DNA of 64,000 nucleotides, taken from positions 3,038,001 to 3,102,000 of the forward strand of contig NZ_CP066776.1 in assembly GCF_010681825.2 (NCBI RefSeq), read 5' to 3'. The notes beneath the pieces are model-generated. The model had not been told where the DNA came from. It saw only the letters and a list, made by a program, of their open reading frames with translations, and did not search any database. Positions 1,838 to 45,069 of this stretch are shown here, piece after piece. The first letter of the stretch is position 1. Each line of letters begins with the position of its first letter. The DNA is from Sulfuriroseicoccus oceanibius. GTDB lineage: Bacteria; Verrucomicrobiota; Verrucomicrobiia; Verrucomicrobiales; SLCJ01. The translations under genes and the position numbers were made by a program.

Positions 1838-3103
1838 CTACGCGCTGACGACTTGCTCTTTGCTGATACCGCGCAGTTCGAAGATCCGGACAATCGTATC
1901 CTCGATCAAATTGCTCGGGCAGGACGCACCAGCGGTGATTCCAATGGTCACCGGTTCATCAGACACAAACTTCGCCGAATAGCCCGTCGCGACCTGCTCC
2001 TCCTTGGCTTCCAAGTCGAAGTGGATCACCTCTTCCAGACTGCGCAAACACTCCGCCTTGCGGATGAAGAACGATGGCACCACTTCCTGCCCGATTTCCA
2101 CAAGGTGAGTGGTGTTTGAGCTGTTGTAACCGCCCACAACCAAAAGCAGGTCGAGCGGACGCTTGAGCAGATCGAAAAGCGAATCCTGACGCTCCTGCGT
2201 GGCTCCGCAAATGGTATCGAACACCTGGAAGTTCGTGGCGTCGCCGCCATCGCGATCGACAATCGCAGCGCGCAGGCGGTTCTGCACTTCCTCGGTTTCG
2301 GACTTAAGCATGGTGGTCTGGTTAGCCACACCGATCTGCTTCAAGTGTTCATCGGGATCGAAGCCATCGGAATACGAGCCCTCGAAGTACTTCATGAACT
2401 CATCGCGTTGTCCATTGCCGCGGATATAATCGCAGACCTTTTCGGTATCGGCCAATGTCAGCACCACGAGGTAATGACCGGTCTTGTCCGGCCCGAGTGC
2501 GCGGGATGCGGTGGCACGGGTTTCTTCATGTCCCGCTTTCCCGTGGATGATAGAGGTTACTCCGGCCTTGGCGTAGCCGCGGACCCGACGCCAGACGCTC
2601 ATCACGTCGCCACAGGTTGTGTCCACCACGATGACCCCCAACTCGTCAAGCTTCTCCATGAACGTCATCGGCGCACCGAACGCCGGCACAATCACCACGT
2701 CGTCTTCGGTCAAATCATCGTACTCCGCGGTGAGCTCGCGCCACTCGAGCGAGGTAATCCCCATCTCACGCAGCTGGCGGTTCACTTCCGGGTTATGAAT
2801 GATCTCACCGATCAAAAAGATCCGGTTTTCCGGGAACACACGGCGCGAAGCATACGCCAGGTCGATCGCGCGCTCGACGCCATAACAAAAGCCAAACTGC
2901 TGAGCCAGATAGACCGTCGTGTTGTCGATGCTGATCTGACCGCCCCGCGAGCGCACTTTCTCGACAATCGAGCTGCGGTAATGCTCAGCAACCTCTGCCT
3001 GCACCATCTCCATCACATCGGGGCGACGGACATTGACGCGCTTGCGTTTCTTGGGCTTCGGCTGGGGTTTTGGAGTGCTGGCTGATTCGTCCATGGCAAA
3101 CAT
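1838..3103 (-). CDS. ispH: 4-hydroxy-3-methylbut-2-enyl diphosphate reductase (IspH/LytB)
   Basis: Last step of the MEP isoprenoid pathway: reduces HMBPP to IPP and DMAPP with a 4Fe-4S cluster. The three cluster cysteines are visible in FGFCYGVERA (Cys73), VDTTCGDVMSVW and FDTICGATQERQ. At 421 residues it is longer than the approximately 310-residue E. coli enzyme. The extra length is a basic N-terminal tail (PKPQPKPKKRKR) of about 60 residues and insertions in the body, a long form that I associate with PVC and related phyla. ATG at 3103 or 3094 are both possible starts. It supplies isoprenoid for the undecaprenyl carrier used by MraY, encoded in the dcw cluster at the right end of the window. 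Confidence 0.95.
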   Translation of the reverse strand: MFAMDESASTPKPQPKPKKRKRVNVRRPDVMEMVQAEVAEHYRSSIVEKVRSRGGQISIDNTTVYLAQQFGFCYGVERAIDLAYASRRVFPENRIFLIGEIIHNPEVNRQLREMGITSLEWRELTAEYDDLTEDDVVIVPAFGAPMTFMEKLDELGVIVVDTTCGDVMSVWRRVRGYAKAGVTSIIHGKAGHEETRATASRALGPDKTGHYLVVLTLADTEKVCDYIRGNGQRDEFMKYFEGSYSDGFDPDEHLKQIGVANQTTMLKSETEEVQNRLRAAIVDRDGGDATNFQVFDTICGATQERQDSLFDLLKRPLDLLLVVGGYNSSNTTHLVEIGQEVVPSFFIRKAECLRSLEEVIHFDLEAKEEQVATGYSAKFVSDEPVTIGITAGASCPSNLIEDTIVRIFELRGISKEQVVSA

Positions 3104-3135
3104 TTACACCCTGTCTGGCGCTCGGCAAACAATTC

Positions 3136-3759
3136 TCACGACTGCGGAATCCGCGGTGCCGGACCGGATTCAAAAATCCGCCCCTTGTACAGGTGGAAGA
3201 TCGCATTCGTGTTCAAAATATGCGGCGGATATTCGGGATCATCGTAATCCTGCGGCCGCTTCAAGTTGCGCCCAATCGTTCGATCCTCCGGAAAGCTGTT
3301 GCGCACGATCACCGGTGTTCCCACCCGCACCAACTCGAAGAACTTAGGTGCCACATTCTGATGCAACCTCACACAGCCTGCAGAGCGCGGCACGGGGTGG
3401 ACCCAGCCCGCGTGAATGCCGTACGCCGGACTGTAAAACGAACACCAATAACCCATCGGATAGCCAGCTCCTGGGTTGCTGCGGCGGCGGCGGTATTTCT
3501 CTTTGCCTAAAATACGATGATTGCCCAGCGGCGTCGGTGTCTCGGGTTTGCCGATGGCCGCGGCGGTCACGAGCAATGCCTTGTCCCCTTCCACCACGTA
3601 GAGTGCTTGGTTTCTGATACTGATCTTAACCACCACATTCTGCGGATTGGTCGGACGGTAGGCCTTGGATTGGTAGGGAGCCCGCCCGCCGGTGGAGGCA
3701 CATGATGCCAAACCGGCGAGCATTGCCGCCCCAATGATCAGTCGCAGAATCAGTTTCAT
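3136..3759 (-). CDS. L,D-transpeptidase (YkuD domain) lipoprotein
   Basis: Probable periplasmic enzyme that makes 3-3 cross-links in peptidoglycan or attaches proteins to it. The start at 3759 (MKLILRL) leaves a clean signal peptide ending in the lipobox LASC, so the protein should be lipid-anchored; upstream ATGs at 3777 and 3768 are less likely. The YkuD signature is HAGWVHPVPRSAGCVRLH, with the catalytic Cys inside SAGCVR and the upstream His. Residues from about 45 on (NVVVKISIRNQALYVVEG) match the start of the family domain, and TPLGNHRI is the usual TPxG segment. It ends 32 bases before the ispH start, on the same strand. Confidence 0.88.
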   Translation of the reverse strand: MKLILRLIIGAAMLAGLASCASTGGRAPYQSKAYRPTNPQNVVVKISIRNQALYVVEGDKALLVTAAAIGKPETPTPLGNHRILGKEKYRRRRSNPGAGYPMGYWCSFYSPAYGIHAGWVHPVPRSAGCVRLHQNVAPKFFELVRVGTPVIVRNSFPEDRTIGRNLKRPQDYDDPEYPPHILNTNAIFHLYKGRIFESGPAPRIPQS

Positions 3760-4892: not shown

Positions 4893-5891
4893 ATGAGCCA
4901 ACCATCCAACGCAGCCCCCCTCCCACCACAACCGTCGATGTGGAAACGCCTGCGCTACGTGATCGAGTGGCTCGCTGTGAAAACCGGCCAGGAAACCGTG
5001 GCAATGCTCGACCACCGCAGCATCCCAACGGTCGCCAATGCACTGGGGAGCATCGCCGCCCTCGTCGACCGCCGCGGACGCCACACCGCGCTGGAAAACC
5101 TGCGAGTCGTTTTCGGCGATCGCTTTTCAACAAAGGAACGAAACGCCATCGTCCGCGAAAGCTACAGTCAGTTCGCCCGCGCGTTCATCGACCTCTTCTG
5201 GTCGCACAACCTGAATTCCGACAACTTCCGCTGTTTCGCCACCTTCGAGCTCGAAGATGAAGAAGCCACGCTGGCCGCAGGCAAACAAGGCGCTGTCTGG
5301 CTCACCCCGCACTACAGCAATTTCGAATGGATGGCGCTGTGCTGGGCCTTCGTCGACGGGGATGAATTCACCATCATCGCCGAGGACTTCAAAAACGATC
5401 GGCTGACAGGGTTGTTCCGCAAGTTCCGCGAAGCCTCCGGCCACCGCGTGATCCCGCAGGAGCGCGCCATGATCCGCCTGCTCAAGGTGCTCAAGTCCGG
5501 GGGCAACACCGCATTCCTGCCCGACCTCAACGTACCCGCCGGCAACGCAGCCATCCCCGTCTCCTGCTTCGGCCTGAAAGTCTCCGCCACGCCACTGCAC
5601 GCCCTGCTCGCCGCACGCACCGGCGCCCCCGTGGTGCCCGGCATCTGCCTTCCAAACGCCGACGGCAGCTATCAGATGAAGGTTTTCAAACCCATCACCT
5701 TCGCCAAAGACACACCGCTCGAAGAAATCGCCCAACAATGCTGGGATATCTTCGAACCATGGATCAAGGAACGCCCCGCTCCATGGCTCTGGATGTACAA
5801 GCATTGGCGCTACCGCTCACGCACCAACCCGGACAACTACCCCGCCTACGCAAACTTCTCCAAGAAGTTCGACAAAATGGAAGCGCTGTAG
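4893..5891 (+). CDS. LpxL/HtrB-type lipid A acyltransferase
   Basis: 332 residues from ATG 4893 (MSQPSNAAPL), chosen because the frame upstream overlaps the divergent peptidase gene. The family catalytic pattern HX4E is seen in TPHYSNFEWMAL. The later FLPDLNVPAG and GLKVSATPLHALLAARTGAPVVPG correspond to the conserved binding-site blocks of LpxL/LpxM/PlsC-like transferases. The end PAPWLWMYKHWRYR matches the usual W-x-H-R-R-W type ending. It should add a secondary acyl chain to lipid A at the inner membrane, which fits a diderm envelope. No strong hydrophobic N-terminal anchor is seen, which is slightly unusual for LpxL. Confidence 0.85.
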   Translation: MSQPSNAAPLPPQPSMWKRLRYVIEWLAVKTGQETVAMLDHRSIPTVANALGSIAALVDRRGRHTALENLRVVFGDRFSTKERNAIVRESYSQFARAFIDLFWSHNLNSDNFRCFATFELEDEEATLAAGKQGAVWLTPHYSNFEWMALCWAFVDGDEFTIIAEDFKNDRLTGLFRKFREASGHRVIPQERAMIRLLKVLKSGGNTAFLPDLNVPAGNAAIPVSCFGLKVSATPLHALLAARTGAPVVPGICLPNADGSYQMKVFKPITFAKDTPLEEIAQQCWDIFEPWIKERPAPWLWMYKHWRYRSRTNPDNYPAYANFSKKFDKMEAL

Positions 5892-5932
5892 CCCTCCTGC
5901 GCGACGCTACAGCCCACAGCGGGGCTCAGCCA

Positions 5933-8233
5933 TCACTTCTGGATTCCGTAGCGCACGCGCAGGAAGTCCGCGGCCGGACGGTATTGCGGGTTAATCTGCA
6001 ACGCACGCTCGGCGGCACTGATCGCTTCGTTGGTCTTTTGCAGACGATAGTAAATCGTCGCCAACGCAAACGGATAATCCGGACTGTCCGGAGCCAGACG
6101 CTCGGCTTCTTTAAGGTGAGTCGCCGCCGTTTCGAGGTCGTTGGCTCCCGCGGCATGGAGGCCGTAGTTGTAATGATAGCGCGGGTTATCCGGCTCCAGC
6201 TCGACCGCCTTGAGGAAAGCTGCACCGGCTTTGTTTGCCTCCAGGGCTTCCGAATAACCGAGCCCGAGAAGGAATCTGAGATAGCCATTGTCCGGCTCCA
6301 CATCGGTGGCTTTCTCCAGCAGCTTGAGCGCCTCGGCGCCGCGTCCCAGTCGGCTCAGATAAACAGCCTTTGCCTGATAACCCGCCACGGATGACGGGTC
6401 CCACGCAATCACTTTGTCGTACCACTCCTCCGCTGCGGAGAACTCACCGCGCGACACCAGGATCTCCGCACGCCTCAGCGCACCGGTCGGCTGATCCGCA
6501 ACGTGATTCAGGTAGCTCATCAATTCTTTCATCAACGGGGAATCGTCCGGCAACGATTGAGTGAACGCCCAACCTGCTTCCATCCGCACGGAGCGCATCG
6601 GATCCTCGACCAGCTTGCGCACCACATCCAAAGCTCCCGCCGTGCGTGCCAATCGGGCACACGCCACCCTCACCAGGTAATCCTCGTCGTCCATCGCCGC
6701 CCGAACCCGCTCAAGCACGCGCTCGTCCCTCGCCCACGGTTCCATCAGTTCCAACAAGCTCGCGCGCCACAGCGGAATCTCCTCGCCATCATAGGCCACT
6801 AGCAGCTTTTCAATCGCCACAGGATCGCCATCATACGCAAGCTGCACCGCCCGCGTACGCTCACGCTCCGGTCGCTCCATCTTGTCGCCATACCATTTGT
6901 CCACCCACTCAATCGCCCAATCCACGGACTGATCATCGTGGCACTTGTTGCACGCATTCGGAATCCCGAGCTCTTTGGTCAACAACGGATCCGGTGAGTG
7001 AAACCCGTGATCGCGACGCGGGTCATTGCCCATGTACACCGTCGAGGGCATGTGACACTCCACACACATGTTCCCCGTGCTCCCGTCTTTATGGAACGAA
7101 TGCGCAGTCGGATTAATCACCGTCGCCCCATCCACGCCACCACCATGGCATTGCAAACAAAGCGCGTTGTTCTCGATTGGATACTTGATCGCCGCGGTGT
7201 GAGGGTCGTGGCAGTCCAGGCACCCCACCCCGGCGTGCCCCATTTTACTCATCTTCAAGGACGCCCATACGTAGTCCTCGTTCAAAATCTGGCCGTCCGC
7301 ATAATACAGTGTCGGATGGGTTGGCAAGGTCAGGTGGTAGTGATCTCCATACTTCTTGCCCGCTTTGAACTCATCATCAAATTCACCGCGACGCGAGTGA
7401 CACGATGCACAGGCATCCATCACCACATCCTCCTCACCCAGCATCGGGTCCATTCCTGGGCGGATCAAACATCCCGTGTCCGCCACAGGCGTCGTAGTAT
7501 AACCGCCGTGACATTGGGTGCAGCCGATGGACATCTCATCCCAGGTCGAATGGTAGGTATCCGTCGCTACATCATAGCCCTTGTGGAAATTGGTCATATG
7601 GCAGTAGGCGCAGTTGGCATTCCAATTCATGCCCCGCCCGAGCCAATGCCCCCACTCCCCCTCGCTACGGTCGTCCTGCGGCGTGGTATCGATCCAGGTC
7701 TTCGTCTCCGGAGCCCAGGCAGTGCGGGTGGTTTGCCACCGCCCTTTGTCCGACTGCGTGAGGTATTGGATCAGCGGAGTCTCGCCGATCGCCATGTCAA
7801 AGTGCCACGTTTTGCCATCCGGTCTCAGCGGTGAACTCACATCCGCCGACGGCCGCTCCCCGGCCTTCCACTGAAATTGCCACTTCTCTCCACCCGGCAC
7901 CTTGATCCCAGCCGCGGCAAATGCCTCGGCATCACGCTCCTTGCTCACCAATCGGTTCGCCAATGCATGATGCGAGTGCTTCCACTTCTCCGCATAGTCC
8001 TGATGGCACGCCAGACATTGATGGGAGATCGCACGCACCGGCTGACGCGACGCCCCAGCTTCCTTGGTATAAACCTGCTCGACCGCCAGTGGATGGCCCA
8101 CCGGCTTGACTTCCTGCCTCGCAGCCTTGCTTGCCTCCTGTGCCTCGCGCGTCCCGCAATATGCCAACACCAAAACCGAGGCCCCAATCGCCAACGGCTT
8201 CCACTTCAATTGCTGAATCCAACGCGCACTCAT
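5933..8233 (-). CDS. Octaheme c-type cytochrome with HEAT-like and TPR domains
   Basis: 766 residues from ATG 8233, two bases after the upstream gene's stop; a TTG at 8239 would instead overlap that gene by four bases. The N-terminus has a signal segment ending in VLAYCGT, so it could be a lipoprotein. Eight CXXCH haem sites follow: CLACH (about residue 72), CAYCH (207), CTQCH (237), CASCH (273), CLDCH (338), CLQCH (358), CVECH (389) and CNKCH (427). The spacing resembles the cytochrome c-554/NrfA-like multihaem families. Residues of about 450-600 are alternating Arg/Leu helices resembling HEAT repeats, and the last 170 contain TPR units ending EAISAAERALQINPQYRPAADF. It is probably an exported electron carrier or oxidoreductase with a protein-binding tail. 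The substrate is unknown. Confidence 0.85.
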   Translation of the reverse strand: MSARWIQQLKWKPLAIGASVLVLAYCGTREAQEASKAARQEVKPVGHPLAVEQVYTKEAGASRQPVRAISHQCLACHQDYAEKWKHSHHALANRLVSKERDAEAFAAAGIKVPGGEKWQFQWKAGERPSADVSSPLRPDGKTWHFDMAIGETPLIQYLTQSDKGRWQTTRTAWAPETKTWIDTTPQDDRSEGEWGHWLGRGMNWNANCAYCHMTNFHKGYDVATDTYHSTWDEMSIGCTQCHGGYTTTPVADTGCLIRPGMDPMLGEEDVVMDACASCHSRRGEFDDEFKAGKKYGDHYHLTLPTHPTLYYADGQILNEDYVWASLKMSKMGHAGVGCLDCHDPHTAAIKYPIENNALCLQCHGGGVDGATVINPTAHSFHKDGSTGNMCVECHMPSTVYMGNDPRRDHGFHSPDPLLTKELGIPNACNKCHDDQSVDWAIEWVDKWYGDKMERPERERTRAVQLAYDGDPVAIEKLLVAYDGEEIPLWRASLLELMEPWARDERVLERVRAAMDDEDYLVRVACARLARTAGALDVVRKLVEDPMRSVRMEAGWAFTQSLPDDSPLMKELMSYLNHVADQPTGALRRAEILVSRGEFSAAEEWYDKVIAWDPSSVAGYQAKAVYLSRLGRGAEALKLLEKATDVEPDNGYLRFLLGLGYSEALEANKAGAAFLKAVELEPDNPRYHYNYGLHAAGANDLETAATHLKEAERLAPDSPDYPFALATIYYRLQKTNEAISAAERALQINPQYRPAADFLRVRYGIQK

Positions 8234-40304: not shown

Positions 40305-40318
40305 CACAATATGTTGTG
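40305..40318 (+). promoter_or_regulatory. NrdR-box-like site
   Basis: CACAATATGTTGTG matches the NrdR consensus (acaCwAtATaTwGtgt) and is nearly palindromic. It lies 213 bases before the nrdB ATG. NrdR boxes normally come in pairs about 31 bases apart; I see no clear second one. Confidence 0.6.
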
Positions 40319-40530: not shown

Positions 40531-41625
40531 ATGTCCAACACGACCACCATTACCATTGGGAACCGCACGTTTGTCCTCGACCGCGACAAGGCGGAAGAAG
40601 CCTACCGCCAGAAGCTCGTCATCAACGGCAAGGAGACCATGTTCTTCAACATCCTGCCGCTGAAGTACCAGTGGGCCTACGATCTCTACAAGACGATGAA
40701 GGCAAACCACTGGGAGCCAGAGGACATCCCGATGCAAAAGGACATCGAGCAGTGGCGCGACACCACCGCGGTCAACGACATCGACCGTTGGATCATCAAG
40801 ATGGGTATCGGCTATTTCTCCGCAGCCGAAGGCATCGTCGGCGACAACATCCTCCACGTCGTGCGTGAAGTGGTCACCGCTCCCGAGCTCAAGCTCGTGC
40901 TCGGCCGCCATGCCCACGAGGAAAACATCCACGCAGACTCACTCGTCTACATGCTCTCCTCACTCGGCATCAACCCACACGAGTGCGAGGCCATGTTCGA
41001 GGACGTCGAGACCATCAAGGCAAAGAACAATTTCGTGGTCAGCAACTCGCGCGCCCTGCGCCGCGACATCGACCTCACCCTGACCGAGAACAAGCAGGCG
41101 CTGGCGAAAAACATCTTCATGTTCGGCCAGATCATGGAAGGCACCCAGTTCTATGGCCTGTTCGGCATGATCCTTTCGCTCTACCGCCAGGGCAAGTTCC
41201 CGGGCATTGGCCAGATGTTCCGCTACACGCTGCGTGACGAGTCCAACCACATCGAAGTCTTCCGCAACTTGTTGATGGATCTCGTCGATGAGAACCCGGA
41301 TGTGTGGACCGAAGAGTTCAAAGAAGACCTCCGCGCCACCATGAAGGAAGGCATCGAGATCGAGAAAGCTTTCATCCGCGACTGCCTGCCGGTGGACTCC
41401 CTTGGCCTGACCCTGGACGAGTTCCTCACCTACATCGACTACATCGGCGACCGCCGACTCGAGAGCTGCGGCCTCAAGCCACTCAACGAGAACAAGCTCG
41501 AGAACCCACTGCCATGGCTGGCGGAGATGATGGACATCAAGAAGGAGACCAACTTCTTCGAAGGTCGCGTCACCGAATACCGCAAGGCCTCGTCGCTCGA
41601 CACCGTCGACGACGACGAACTTTAA
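40531..41625 (+). CDS. nrdB: Ribonucleotide reductase beta subunit, class Ic-like (Leu at radical site)
   Basis: 364 residues from ATG 40531 (MSNTTTITIG). With NrdA it reduces ribonucleotides. Metal ligands by alignment to E. coli: Glu100 (FSAAEGIVGDN), Glu131 and His134 (ENIHADSL), Glu203 (IMEGTQF), Glu237 and His240 (RDESNHIEVF). In E. coli the radical Tyr sits four residues after the His; here that residue is Leu138. The first ligand is Glu instead of Asp. Both changes are those of the class Ic Mn/Fe enzymes of chlamydia-like type, which use a Mn(IV)Fe(III) cofactor rather than a Tyr radical. nrdA follows after a strong hairpin. Confidence 0.93.
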   Translation: MSNTTTITIGNRTFVLDRDKAEEAYRQKLVINGKETMFFNILPLKYQWAYDLYKTMKANHWEPEDIPMQKDIEQWRDTTAVNDIDRWIIKMGIGYFSAAEGIVGDNILHVVREVVTAPELKLVLGRHAHEENIHADSLVYMLSSLGINPHECEAMFEDVETIKAKNNFVVSNSRALRRDIDLTLTENKQALAKNIFMFGQIMEGTQFYGLFGMILSLYRQGKFPGIGQMFRYTLRDESNHIEVFRNLLMDLVDENPDVWTEEFKEDLRATMKEGIEIEKAFIRDCLPVDSLGLTLDEFLTYIDYIGDRRLESCGLKPLNENKLENPLPWLAEMMDIKKETNFFEGRVTEYRKASSLDTVDDDEL

Positions 41626-41727: not shown

Positions 41728-44700
41728 ATGATCCGCCGTAAACCGACTCTCCACGAATCCTTAGAAGAGGACATCGCTCTTAAACGCCTCGTTTCCACCC
41801 CGACCGACCAAAAGCCAGGCTTCGCTTGGCGCGACGCTCTCGGCCAACAGAAAGTGGAATCGCTGCCTGACATCAAAATCACCCGCGGCGGGATGGAGTC
41901 TGAGTTCAAACTGGCGGACGTGGCCGACACCATCGGTAACGCTCTCACCGACCTCTTGCTCTCGCGCAAGGAAGAGGACATCTACAACGAAGAGAACCGT
42001 GACTTTGTCGCCAACGTGGCCCACTCGGTGGCACGCCGCCTGATCGACCAGGTCCGCGACGGCCGCTCGCTGCGCCTGTCGGAGAACGACCTTTACCTTC
42101 TGATCGAGAAAGCCTTGATCGAGAACGACGCCCACGACATCGCCAAGAGCCTGGTCTTCCGCCGCTCGGTGGAGCGCGGTGACGAAATCGAACTCGCCGG
42201 CAACAGCGACCAACCACCGGTCACCGTGCGACTCATCCGCCGCAACGGCAACGTCGTGCCATGGAACCCTGCCAAGATCGAAGCAGCGGTCCGTAAATCG
42301 TTCCTCTCACTCAAATTCGACGCCGACGGCGCCACTGAAGTTGCCCAAGCCGTCACCGAGCGCGTGCGCAACCTCGACCAGGCATTCGTCCACATCGAAG
42401 ACGTCCAGGACATGGTGCAGGAAGAACTCATGCGCCACGGTCACTTCAAAGTCGCCGAGTCCTACATCCTTTACCGCGCACACCGCTCGGAGCTGCGCGA
42501 GCGCGAGACCGAAGCGTCCGCCAACACCGACGAGCAGGAAAGCATGATCGTCGTCCGCACGTCGGACGGCCAGAGCATCTTCTGGGACGGCAGCGACCTG
42601 CGCGCCCGTATTCAGTTCGCCTCGATCGGACTCGACCTCTGCTACGACGAACTGCGCATCGAACGCGAACTGCGCCGCTCGCTCTCCGCTGAAATCACCC
42701 GCGAGAACCTCGACAAAACCATCATCCTCAACGCCAAGTCGTTGATGGAGCGCGACGCGGACTTCGCCAAGTTCGCCGGCCGCATCCTGCTCTCGTACAT
42801 CTACGAAGAAGTGCTCGGGTGGGACATCGTGCGCGACGGCGTGGCTGGCCTCAAGGACGCCCACAAGCTCGCCTTCAAGGCCTACGTCAACCACGGCATC
42901 AAGATCAAGCGCCTCAGCGAGAAGCTCCTCGAGTACGACCTCGACAAACTCTCCGACGCCCTCGACCCAAGCGCTGACCTGGACTTCGACTACCTCGGAA
43001 TTCAGACACTCTACGACCGTTACCTCATCGTCGACAAAACCGGTGCCAAGCCGCGTCGCCTTGAGACACCTCAGTTCTTCTGGATGCGTGTCTCTATGGG
43101 GCTCTTCGGCGAAGAGCCAACCGACAAAGAAGACTGGGCGATCAAACTTTACTCGCTCTACAAGGGCCGCCGCTTCTGCTCGTCGACCCCTACGCTCTTC
43201 AACTCGGGCACCAACCACAGCCAGCTCTCGAGCTGCTACCTCTACAAGGTCGACGACTCGATCGAGTCGATCATGATCCGCGGCATCTCGGAGAACGCCT
43301 TCCTCTCGAAGTGGGCAGGCGGACTCGGTGGCTCGTGGACCGCTGTGCGCGGCACCGGCGGCTACATCCAAGGCACCAACGGCGAAAGCCAGGGCGTCAT
43401 CCCATTCCTAAAGCTCCACAACGACCAGCTCGTTGCGGTCAACCAGGGCGGAAAACGCCGCGGCTCCGGCTGCGCCTACCTCGAAACCTGGCACAACGAT
43501 ATCGAGGACTTCCTCGAACTGCGCAAAAACACCGGTGACGACCGCCGTCGTTGCCACGACATGAACACCGCCAACTGGATCCCGGACTTGTTCATGCAGC
43601 GCATGGAAGCCCGCCAGAACTGGACGCTCTTCCGCGCGAACGAAACTCCAGACCTCCACGACCTCTACGGCCAGGCATTCGCCCTGCGCTACGAGGAATA
43701 CGAGGCAGCCGCTGAGCGCGGTGAAATCTGGAGCAAGCAGATCCCGGCGATCGACCTGTGGAAGGCGATGCTCAAGATGCTCTTCGAGACCGGCCACCCA
43801 TGGATCACATTCAAGGATGCGTGCAACGTGCGCAGCCCACAGGACCACGCCGGTGTCATCCACTCGTCCAACCTTTGCACCGAGATCACTCTCAACACAT
43901 CGGACGAAGAAACCGCTGTGTGTAACCTCGGCTCGGTCGTGCTCGACTCGCACATCCGCGAAGACGGCAGCCTCGACCACGAGATGCTCAAGGAGACCAT
44001 CGACATCGCAGTCCGCGCCCTGGACAACGTGATCGACATCAACTTCTACCCAACCGAAGCAGCACGCACATCGAACACACGCCACCGCCCGATCGGCCTC
44101 GGCGTGATGGGCCTGCAGAACGCTCTGTTCAAGCGCAACATCTCGTTCGCCTCGGATGAAGCCATCGAGTTCAACGACGAGTTCATGGAAGCTATCGCTT
44201 ACTACGCCTACAACGCGTCGAGCAACCTGGCTGGCGAGCGCGGCACCTACTCGTCCTACAAGGGCAGCAAGTGGTCCCGCGGCATGCTCCCACAAGACAC
44301 CATCGACCTCCTCGCCCAAGAGCGCGGCGAAGAAATCGACATCCCTCGTGGCGGCAAGATGGACTGGTCGTTCGTCCGCGAAAACATCGCCAAGAACGGC
44401 ATGCGCAACTCAAACGTGATGGCCATCGCCCCAACCGCGACCATCTCGAACATCATGGGCACCACCCCATGCATCGAGCCGAACTACAAGAACCTCTACG
44501 TGAAGTCGAACCTGTCCGGTGACTTCATCGTCCTCAACCGCGCCCTGGTCCGCGACCTCAAGGCCCGCGACCTCTGGAACGATGAAATGATCGACCAGCT
44601 CAAGTACTTCGATGGCGACCTTGATAACATCGACAGCATCCCTGCCGACCTGAAGCAGAAGTACTCGACCGTCTTCTCGATCGAATACAAGTACTTCATC

Positions 44701-44997
44701 GACGCCGCGGCCCGCCGTCAAAAGTGGATCGACCAGGCTCAGAGTGTGAACCTCTTCATCGGATCACCAGACCTCAAGATCCTCTCGCACATGTACCGCT
44801 CGGCATGGCGCAAGGGCCTCAAGACCACCTACTACCTCCGCTCACTCGGTGCCTCGAACATCGAAAAAGCCAGCGGCAACGCTGCCAAGGAGATCAAAGG
44901 GGTCATGGGCGGCAAGAAAGAGTACAGCGAAGCTGAAAAGCAAGCCTGCTCGATCGACGCCATGATCAACGGCGGCACCTGCGAAGCCTGCCAGTAA
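41728..44997 (+). CDS. nrdA: Ribonucleotide reductase alpha subunit with three ATP-cone domains
   Basis: 1,089 residues, much longer than the 761 of E. coli NrdA. Three ATP-cone-like regulatory domains come first: residues about 49-147, 166-254 (VRLIRRNGNVVPWNPAKIEA) and 274-363 (RTSDGQSIFWDGSDL); the last lies where E. coli has its single cone. The catalytic barrel follows, with LSSCYLYKVDDS (Cys near 502), NLCTEITLN (near 717) and AVCNLGS (near 732) as the active-site cysteines, and a C-terminal redox pair GGTCEACQ. ATP cones sense dATP/ATP for overall activity. Triple-cone alpha subunits are known from Chlamydia. Codon use is strongly biased to C-ending codons, suggesting high expression. 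Confidence 0.95.
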   Translation: MIRRKPTLHESLEEDIALKRLVSTPTDQKPGFAWRDALGQQKVESLPDIKITRGGMESEFKLADVADTIGNALTDLLLSRKEEDIYNEENRDFVANVAHSVARRLIDQVRDGRSLRLSENDLYLLIEKALIENDAHDIAKSLVFRRSVERGDEIELAGNSDQPPVTVRLIRRNGNVVPWNPAKIEAAVRKSFLSLKFDADGATEVAQAVTERVRNLDQAFVHIEDVQDMVQEELMRHGHFKVAESYILYRAHRSELRERETEASANTDEQESMIVVRTSDGQSIFWDGSDLRARIQFASIGLDLCYDELRIERELRRSLSAEITRENLDKTIILNAKSLMERDADFAKFAGRILLSYIYEEVLGWDIVRDGVAGLKDAHKLAFKAYVNHGIKIKRLSEKLLEYDLDKLSDALDPSADLDFDYLGIQTLYDRYLIVDKTGAKPRRLETPQFFWMRVSMGLFGEEPTDKEDWAIKLYSLYKGRRFCSSTPTLFNSGTNHSQLSSCYLYKVDDSIESIMIRGISENAFLSKWAGGLGGSWTAVRGTGGYIQGTNGESQGVIPFLKLHNDQLVAVNQGGKRRGSGCAYLETWHNDIEDFLELRKNTGDDRRRCHDMNTANWIPDLFMQRMEARQNWTLFRANETPDLHDLYGQAFALRYEEYEAAAERGEIWSKQIPAIDLWKAMLKMLFETGHPWITFKDACNVRSPQDHAGVIHSSNLCTEITLNTSDEETAVCNLGSVVLDSHIREDGSLDHEMLKETIDIAVRALDNVIDINFYPTEAARTSNTRHRPIGLGVMGLQNALFKRNISFASDEAIEFNDEFMEAIAYYAYNASSNLAGERGTYSSYKGSKWSRGMLPQDTIDLLAQERGEEIDIPRGGKMDWSFVRENIAKNGMRNSNVMAIAPTATISNIMGTTPCIEPNYKNLYVKSNLSGDFIVLNRALVRDLKARDLWNDEMIDQLKYFDGDLDNIDSIPADLKQKYSTVFSIEYKYFIDAAARRQKWIDQAQSVNLFIGSPDLKILSHMYRSAWRKGLKTTYYLRSLGASNIEKASGNAAKEIKGVMGGKKEYSEAEKQACSIDAMINGGTCEACQ

Positions 44998-45026
44998 GCG
45001 CCCGCGCTGATTCCTAAACCAAACCA

Positions 45027-45069
45027 CAAGCCCGTCGGACCACCTCGTCCGGCGGGCTTGTTTCGTTTT
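45027..45069 (+). terminator. Intrinsic terminator after nrdA
   Basis: CAAGCCCGTCGGAC pairs with GTCCGGCGGGCTTG around a six-base loop; TTTCGTTTT follows. Confidence 0.88.

What the first reader, a model, noticed from the sequence alone, without database searches (positions are those of the whole stretch)
40531..41625. Ribonucleotide reductase beta subunit has Leu in place of the radical tyrosine
ENIHADSL puts Leu138 exactly four residues after metal ligand His134, where E. coli has Tyr122. The first metal ligand is Glu100, as in the chlamydial enzyme, not Asp. All other ligands are intact. Known class Ic enzymes (Chlamydia trachomatis, with Phe) use a Mn(IV)/Fe(III) cofactor. Leu is a rarer variant, so this is a candidate non-chlamydial Mn/Fe enzyme with a different residue.
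Basis: partly seen in the sequence, partly recalled or inferred. Interest (0 to 1): 0.6.

Follow-up and report, generated by a model that had tools for sequence, protein, structure and literature searches.

The report
Tyrosine-free ribonucleotide reductase with leucine
The gene makes the radical-generating half of a DNA-building enzyme that lacks the usual tyrosine and almost certainly uses its metal pair directly; the leucine found instead is already known in such enzymes, but here it marks a whole bacterial lineage with no tested member that I found, some of whose relatives pair or fuse the enzyme with a metal-less twin.

Summary
Window 40531-41625 encodes a 364-residue NrdB. Leu138 aligns with Phe127 of Chlamydia trachomatis NrdB, Glu100 with Glu89, and Tyr140 with Tyr129. 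All six metal ligands and the electron-relay residues are kept. nrdA follows, and no other class I or II reductase was found in the genome; it also has one class III enzyme. The predicted structure is nearest chlamydial NrdB (Z 41).

Leu is neither an oddity nor new. Papers already give Phe, Leu or Val as the mark of subclass Ic. It is fixed in this lineage: 60 of 60 genomes with Leu-type NrdB, out of 288 of the phylum. The lineage is one clade (100/100). Whether it lost Tyr together with the Phe-type or separately is unresolved. The metals cannot be tested here. Neighbours of the ligands differ from those of Phe-type enzymes, so Mn/Fe is likely but not shown.

Beyond the window, 12 relatives carry, beside a Leu-type NrdB, a second NrdB that has lost 3-5 of six ligands. 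In five others both kinds are fused in one chain.

The parts
40531..41625 (+). nrdB, beta subunit of class I ribonucleotide reductase, Leu-type (364 aa)
   Evidence: only PF00268 match of the genome
40828..40830 (+). codon of Glu100, first metal ligand (= Ct Glu89)
   Evidence: alignment; invariant in the Leu-type relatives read
40921..40932 (+). codons of Glu131 to His134, metal ligands of the ExxH motif (= Ct Glu120, His123)
40942..40944 (+). codon CTC of Leu138 at the radical-tyrosine position (= Ct Phe127)
40948..40950 (+). codon of Tyr140 (= Ct Tyr129), not the radical position
41137..41139 (+). codon of Glu203, metal ligand (= Ct Glu193)
41224..41250 (+). codons of Tyr232, Asp236, Glu237 and His240 (relay Tyr222/Asp226 and ligands Glu227/His230 of Ct)
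40711..40713 (+). codon of Trp61 (= Ct Trp51), relay residue
41578..41580 (+). codon of Tyr350 (= Ct Tyr338), C-terminal relay residue to NrdA
41728..44997 (+). nrdA, alpha subunit, 1089 aa, ATP-cone at residues 170-254; catalytic Cys503, Cys717, Cys732, Tyr1035/Tyr1036, Cys1085/Cys1088
   Evidence: Pfam PF03477, PF00317, PF02867; NF005544 over cut-off; motif positions; residue roles recalled from E. coli NrdA
45026..45061 (+). terminator-like hairpin after nrdA (15-pair stem), probable end of the nrdBA unit
   Evidence: pattern scan only

Best explanation
This is the beta subunit of the cell's only identified class I, oxygen-dependent ribonucleotide reductase, of the tyrosine-free (class Ic) way of working. 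Shown: all six dimetal ligands, the relay residues and the NrdA partner are there, and the radical position holds Leu. Inferred: O2 oxidises the dimetal pair bound by Glu100, Glu131, His134, Glu203, Glu237 and His240. The oxidised pair, most likely Mn(IV)/Fe(III) as in Chlamydia, itself takes the place of the tyrosyl radical. On each turnover it draws an electron through Trp61/Asp236 and Tyr350, then Tyr1035/1036 of NrdA, to make the thiyl radical at Cys717. Leu138 only fills the hole of the lost ring. It marks a large clade, mainly Verrucomicrobiota, with its own set of residues around the metal site.
For: Position and ligands. Family: NF005550 316.9 bits against a cut-off of 309; Ct NrdB is the best PDB relative (2e-75; the class Ib and Id chains I recognise score 1e-13 or weaker); AlphaFold model pLDDT 83.9 matches Ct NrdB at Z 41, next family (Aquifex) 36.8, class Id 32-33. 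Necessity: one PF00268, one PF02867 and one NRDD match in the 3.5 Mb single-contig genome, so a dead NrdB would leave only the class III enzyme. No NrdI. Conservation of Leu and Glu in 60 of 60 genomes. In an alignment of 58 rows Glu always goes with Phe, Leu or Ile and Asp always with Tyr (E/F 24, E/L 18, E/I 1, D/Y 15). Print: subclass Ic by Phe, Leu or Val.
Against: The metals were not measured, and nothing here distinguishes Mn/Fe from Fe/Fe or Mn/Mn. 39 columns separate the Leu clade from the Phe-type, many next to ligands (A98, G101, N132, D136, T205, Q206, T233, I241, E242), and at 27 of them Phe-type and Tyr-type agree against the Leu clade; so transfer of the chlamydial cofactor is an extrapolation at 37% identity. 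One shared loss of Tyr is not secured. The one metal-import family tried, Nramp, was not found in the genome, which is weak. A distant row (L029, 22% identity) breaks the Glu/non-Tyr rule.
Confidence: 0.65

Rival explanations
1. The Leu clade is tyrosine-free but uses another metal pair (Mn/Mn, as in class Id, or Fe/Fe) as oxidant; the pocket was remodelled for it.
For: Clade-specific residues beside all four ligand-bearing segments, where Phe-type and Tyr-type relatives mostly agree with each other (27 of 39 columns); long stem branch of the clade (about 2.4 changes per column).
Against: Glu first ligand and Ct-like relay set; far closer to Ct NrdB than to class Id by sequence and fold; class Id keeps the Tyr (passages).
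Confidence: 0.27
2. Another tyrosine, such as Tyr140, carries a stable radical, so the enzyme is in effect class Ia.
For: Tyr140 lies two residues on from Leu138 and is nearly invariant in A2.
Against: Tyr140 aligns with Ct Tyr129, which the Phe-type also has; in the Leu-type relative G078 it is His (L175). Of the other tyrosines near the ligands, Tyr208 is Phe in G067 and G087 (L205, L210).
Confidence: 0.05
3. It is an R2-like ligand-binding oxidase, not a reductase subunit.
For: R2lox models score weakly (NF006200 51.6 bits).
Against: R2lox scores lie far below their cut-offs; nrdA is next door, the C-terminal Tyr350 and the acidic tail are present, and no other NrdB was found in the genome.
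Confidence: 0.02
4. Sequencing error or pseudogene at the radical codon.
For: None found.
Against: Leu in 60 of 60 Leu-type genomes of the phylum sample; open frame of full length.
Confidence: 0.01

Closest known systems
Class Ic ribonucleotide reductase beta subunit of Chlamydia trachomatis (R2c/NrdB; 1syy, 4d8f, 4m1i)
   Same: Glu first ligand, all six ligands, non-Tyr at the radical position, relay Trp51/Tyr222/Asp226/Tyr338, fold (Z 41); partner NrdA aligns along nearly all of NF009029 (that this model is the chlamydial one is recalled)
   Different: Leu for Phe; 37% identity; separate clade; other residues beside the ligands (Thr87 to Ala, Ser90 to Gly, His125 to Asp, Tyr189 to Gly, Ile195 to Thr, Phe196 to Gln)
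NrdBz group of RNRdb, subclass Ic part (NrdBzc), as defined in PMC6370689
   Same: The paper's criterion of Phe, Leu or Val at the Tyr site is met
   Different: Whether the Leu sequences behind that criterion are from this clade was not seen
R2 of Saccharopolyspora erythraea (6y2n)
   Same: Non-chlamydial Phe-type relative, 37% identity
   Different: Phe instead of Leu
Yeast Rnr2/Rnr4 heterodimer (1jk0), compared with the ligand-less NrdB twins of relatives only
   Same: An intact beta beside a homologous chain without metal ligands (yeast side recalled; 1jk0 is titled Y2Y4 heterodimer)
   Different: Bacterial, tandem or fused in one chain, tyrosine-free active chain; heterodimer not shown

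Membership tests
Class Ic RNR beta (R2c) | Tyr of the radical site replaced by Phe, Leu or Val | tested here: met
   Leu138 on Ct Phe127; criterion from PMC6370689 passages
Class Ic RNR beta (R2c) | Glu instead of Asp as first metal ligand, other five ligands kept | tested here: met
Class Ic RNR beta (R2c) | Belongs to the same protein family as Ct NrdB and has an NrdA partner | tested here: met
   NF005550 over cut-off, nrdA adjacent; PDB 2e-75; Z 41
Class Ic RNR beta (R2c) | Relay residues Trp51, Tyr222, Asp226 and Tyr338 (Ct numbers) | tested here: met
   Trp61, Tyr232, Asp236, Tyr350; roles recalled
Class Ic RNR beta (R2c) | Common origin of all tyrosine-free members | tested here: inconclusive
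   one search puts the Leu clade outside the Phe plus Tyr types; inside the tyrosine-free set (97/87); the same at 61/81; AU p 0.114 for the outside placement
Class Ic RNR beta (R2c) | Mn(IV)/Fe(III) cofactor, no tyrosyl radical | not testable with these tools
   needs metal analysis and EPR
Class Ia RNR beta | Tyr at the radical position | tested here: not met
   Leu138
Class Ib RNR | NrdI flavodoxin in the genome | tested here: not met
   no PF07972 match in the own genome, 3 of 14 control genomes ring; NrdF models below cut-off
Class Id RNR beta | Tyr kept at the radical position though not oxidised | tested here: not met
   Leu138; feature from PMC6370689 and PMC8463856 passages
Class Ie RNR beta | Metal-binding carboxylates missing | tested here: not met
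   all six ligands present; feature
R2-like ligand-binding oxidase | Score over the curated R2lox cut-off | tested here: not met
   NF006200 51.6 bits against 194

The most novel reading that the evidence does not exclude
The Leu-type clade is an uncharacterised, metal-only branch of class I reductases with a remodelled cofactor pocket. In several of its lineages one of the two cofactor sites of the beta dimer has been given up: an intact Leu-type beta works as a heterodimer with a dedicated, ligand-less twin, in tandem genes or in one fused chain. That would be a bacterial counterpart of yeast Rnr2/Rnr4 and a natural one-cofactor beta pair. The window's own enzyme would be the two-site homodimer type.
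Probability: 0.5. Interest if true: 0.75.

Novelty: new member of a known kind. Interest (0 to 1): 0.42.

Why it matters
Among class Ic enzymes only the chlamydial one is well studied (inferred from the papers read). A Leu-type enzyme from harmless, partly cultured bacteria, with only 37% identity and other neighbours around the metals, would show which residues really fix the Mn/Fe choice. The relatives with a ligand-less twin, above all the fused ones, would make half-of-sites reactivity directly testable: a beta pair with exactly one cofactor by construction.

Tried and rejected
Rejected: an insertion or intron in the radical region of L027; it is a run of N in the assembly.

Rejected: the first tree as proof of an independent origin of Leu. 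It held very long branches; trees without them moved the clade, and the AU test decided nothing. Rows left out of the 58-row trees: all second-copy paralogues, L143, L176, L029, L185, L188-L192 and most redundant E/L rows; L181 was dropped earlier for a stop in the frame.

Led nowhere: an NrdR-box-like site (40306-40317) is not above chance for the window (7 matches, 13 of 100 shuffles reach 7). Nramp as a sign of manganese use: absent. VIA-align: families not listed there are not excluded. Class O reductases were named in PMC9531940 (passages) as having Phe or Leu here; membership was not tested. PMC2795772 has no passage on class Ic, so the criterion cited to Lundin 2009 was seen only second-hand. 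Hogbom 2004 and 2010 were not read (cited through others). PMC4390871 (passages) names only Phe for subclass Ic. PMC11883743 (passages) gave nothing on the residue. A phage search found only relatives under 60% identity in all 2175 records; none was read further.

In one search the L250 row was out of frame; its 7 of 28 beta pairs are not used. dS is saturated for most pairs, so only pN and pS are quoted.

Full report
WHAT IS THERE. Window 40531-41625 (+) encodes a 364-residue NrdB, followed after 102 bases by nrdA (41728-44997, 1089 aa) and a terminator-like hairpin (pattern only). The genome (one contig, 3.5 Mb) has one NrdB (PF00268), one NrdA-type barrel (PF02867, which also covers class II) and one class III NrdD, and no NrdI. 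So this pair is the only class I or II reductase found, and it must work if the cell makes deoxyribonucleotides in air. NrdA keeps its catalytic cysteines and the tyrosine pair (Cys503, Cys717, Cys732, Tyr1035/1036, Cys1085/1088; roles recalled from E. coli).

THE RADICAL SITE. Against C. trachomatis NrdB, Leu138 sits on Phe127, Glu100 on Glu89, the other ligands on Glu120, His123, Glu193, Glu227 and His230, the relay Trp61/Tyr232/Asp236/Tyr350 on Trp51/Tyr222/Asp226/Tyr338, and Tyr140 on Tyr129. The AlphaFold model (pLDDT 83.9, residues 338-364 poor) has Ct NrdB as nearest solved structure in Foldseek (E 3e-21) and VIA-align (Z 41.2, 2.8 A over 326 residues; next family 36.8; class Id 32-33). 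The S. erythraea R2 (6y2n) is tied with Ct (Z 40.6).

HOW COMMON IS LEU. In a sample of 288 genomes of the phylum, 90 had an NrdB match. Sorted by identity to the window: 60 are 49-100% (window included), 11 about 40%, 19 lower. Residues were read for all 60 of the first (all Glu/Leu), 8 of 11 of the second (all Glu/Phe) and 9 of 19 of the third (all Asp/Tyr). Of 80 named loci, 64 are Leu-type, 15 Glu/Phe and 1 Asp/Tyr. Leu-type genes also occur in Roseithermus (Rhodothermota), Solirubrobacter (Actinomycetota) and Fimbriimonadaceae (L090, L089, L047), which suggests horizontal transfer. No solved structure comes closer than about 37% identity.

ONE LOSS OR TWO. The Leu clade is one clade (100/100). 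In 58 aligned rows Glu at the first ligand always goes with a non-Tyr radical residue and Asp always with Tyr; among all 228 rows one distant row, L029, has Glu and Tyr. A first, quick tree put the Leu clade outside a group holding both Phe- and Tyr-types. Without the longest branches it joins the Phe-types (97/87); with the two trait columns removed this falls to 61/81, and the outside placement is not rejected (p 0.114). I leave it open. What is clear is that 39 columns separate Leu- from Phe-type, and at 27 of them Phe- and Tyr-type agree against Leu (counted by eye from its list), several beside the ligands.

MECHANISM. The best reading is the class Ic way: the oxidised dimetal pair replaces the tyrosyl radical. 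Shown: residues, partner, conservation. Inferred: oxygen activation, Mn/Fe identity, electron route. Mn/Fe is the likeliest pair because Glu, the relay set and the fold are those of the chlamydial enzyme, for which PMC8463856 (passages) describes Mn(IV)/Fe(III) with Mn in site 1; but the altered pocket leaves room for another pair.

WHAT IS IN PRINT. Leu at this place is documented: subclass Ic by Phe, Leu or Val (PMC6370689, passages); Leu, Ile and Val in R2c (PMC3824934, passages); class O with Phe or Leu 'much like class Ic' (PMC9531940, passages). A search for Verrucomicrobiota with NrdB and manganese listed no paper on this clade's enzyme among the 15 shown of 40. So the window's feature is a new member of a known kind.

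BEYOND THE WINDOW. Twelve genomes carry a second, ligand-poor NrdB beside a Leu-type one: Persicirhabdus sediminis (L087, taken to be the same as G381 from the 100% match), eight genomes of genus code g183, G482, G477 (the Tous-C2TDCM MAG, L097) and G034 (fragmentary, with N). In the 11 read in full, 3 to 5 of the six ligands are replaced, while the partner keeps all six plus Leu138 in 11 of 11 (the L097 partner is cut at residue 293). In the six of these loci in which nrdA was found (L087, L266, L267, L268, L271, L272) it follows the pair; L097 shows none in the stretch held, and L236-L239 were not searched for it. Among eight g183 twins pN is 0.06-0.22 and pS 0.63-0.86 in 28 pairs, so the twin is kept by selection. 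Both chains end in the same acidic tail. In five genomes (G402, G360, G351, G467, G382) a single frame of 765-825 codons, stop to stop, holds an intact Leu-type domain followed by a ligand-poor one, with the acidic tail only at the end. These genomes have a separate Leu-type-like NrdB match as well, beside nrdA in the two loci where I looked (L242, L246); the fused genes are not beside nrdA in the stretches held. One fused chain was modelled: pLDDT 79.1, pTM 0.80, two NrdB-like halves by secondary structure; no fold search was run on it. A third kind, in G143 and G231, keeps all six ligands and Leu but has lost the Tyr140 and Tyr232 equivalents; the order there is nrdB, nrdB2, nrdA. The quick tree joins the twins in one clade (SH-aLRT 97, long branches). 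The window's genome has no twin. Searches for such twins in print turned up a short nrdB without active site in 'Ca. Liberibacter asiaticus', for which a heterodimer was speculated (PMC5154197, passages), and eukaryotic cases. That a twin and a Leu-type beta form a working heterodimer is inference.

VERDICT. Observation confirmed; interpretation partly supported; the residue itself is known. Interest lies in the untested clade and in its twins.

Noticed in passing
L087:1379-2440 and 2489-3574 (Persicirhabdus sediminis); L266, L267, L268, L271, L272, L236-L239; L097:1344-2408; L030/L216 (G034): A second NrdB with 3-5 of six metal ligands replaced lies beside a Leu-type nrdB, under purifying selection in g183; possible bacterial analogue of yeast Rnr4.
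   Followed up: yes
L262:1738-4029, L261:1664-3955, L263:2072-4363, L264:682-2919 (= L096), L265:1515-3764: Single frames that fuse an intact Leu-type NrdB to a ligand-less NrdB domain, in five genomes that also have a separate NrdB match.
   Followed up: partly
L173:2065-3129 and L174:996-2075: Genus g40: nrdB, nrdB2, nrdA; nrdB2 keeps all six ligands and Leu but has His for Tyr140 and Asn for Tyr232.
   Followed up: partly
L218 (viral contig) and L220, L229: Viral NrdB with Glu/Ile or Glu/Phe at first ligand and radical site, among mostly Asp/Tyr viral relatives.
   Followed up: partly
L090, L089, L047, L050, L091, L076, L073: Leu-type NrdB in records named Rhodothermota, Actinomycetota, Armatimonadota, Bacteroidota and Planctomycetota; probable horizontal transfer, though several are MAGs and may be misbinned.
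   Followed up: no
Genus code g3: Many small Akkermansia-like genomes have no NrdB match at all, and others an Asp/Tyr type (L028, L186).
   Followed up: no
window 40306-40317: Near-palindrome resembling an NrdR box about 215 bases before nrdB; not above chance.
   Followed up: partly
G239:C60 and G239:C71 (L117, L193): Two full Leu-type nrdB copies in one genome.
   Followed up: no
L264 (G467:C115) 5431-6339: Near the fused NrdB lies a gene that looks like a Mn/Zn ABC-transporter binding protein (judged by eye).
   Followed up: no
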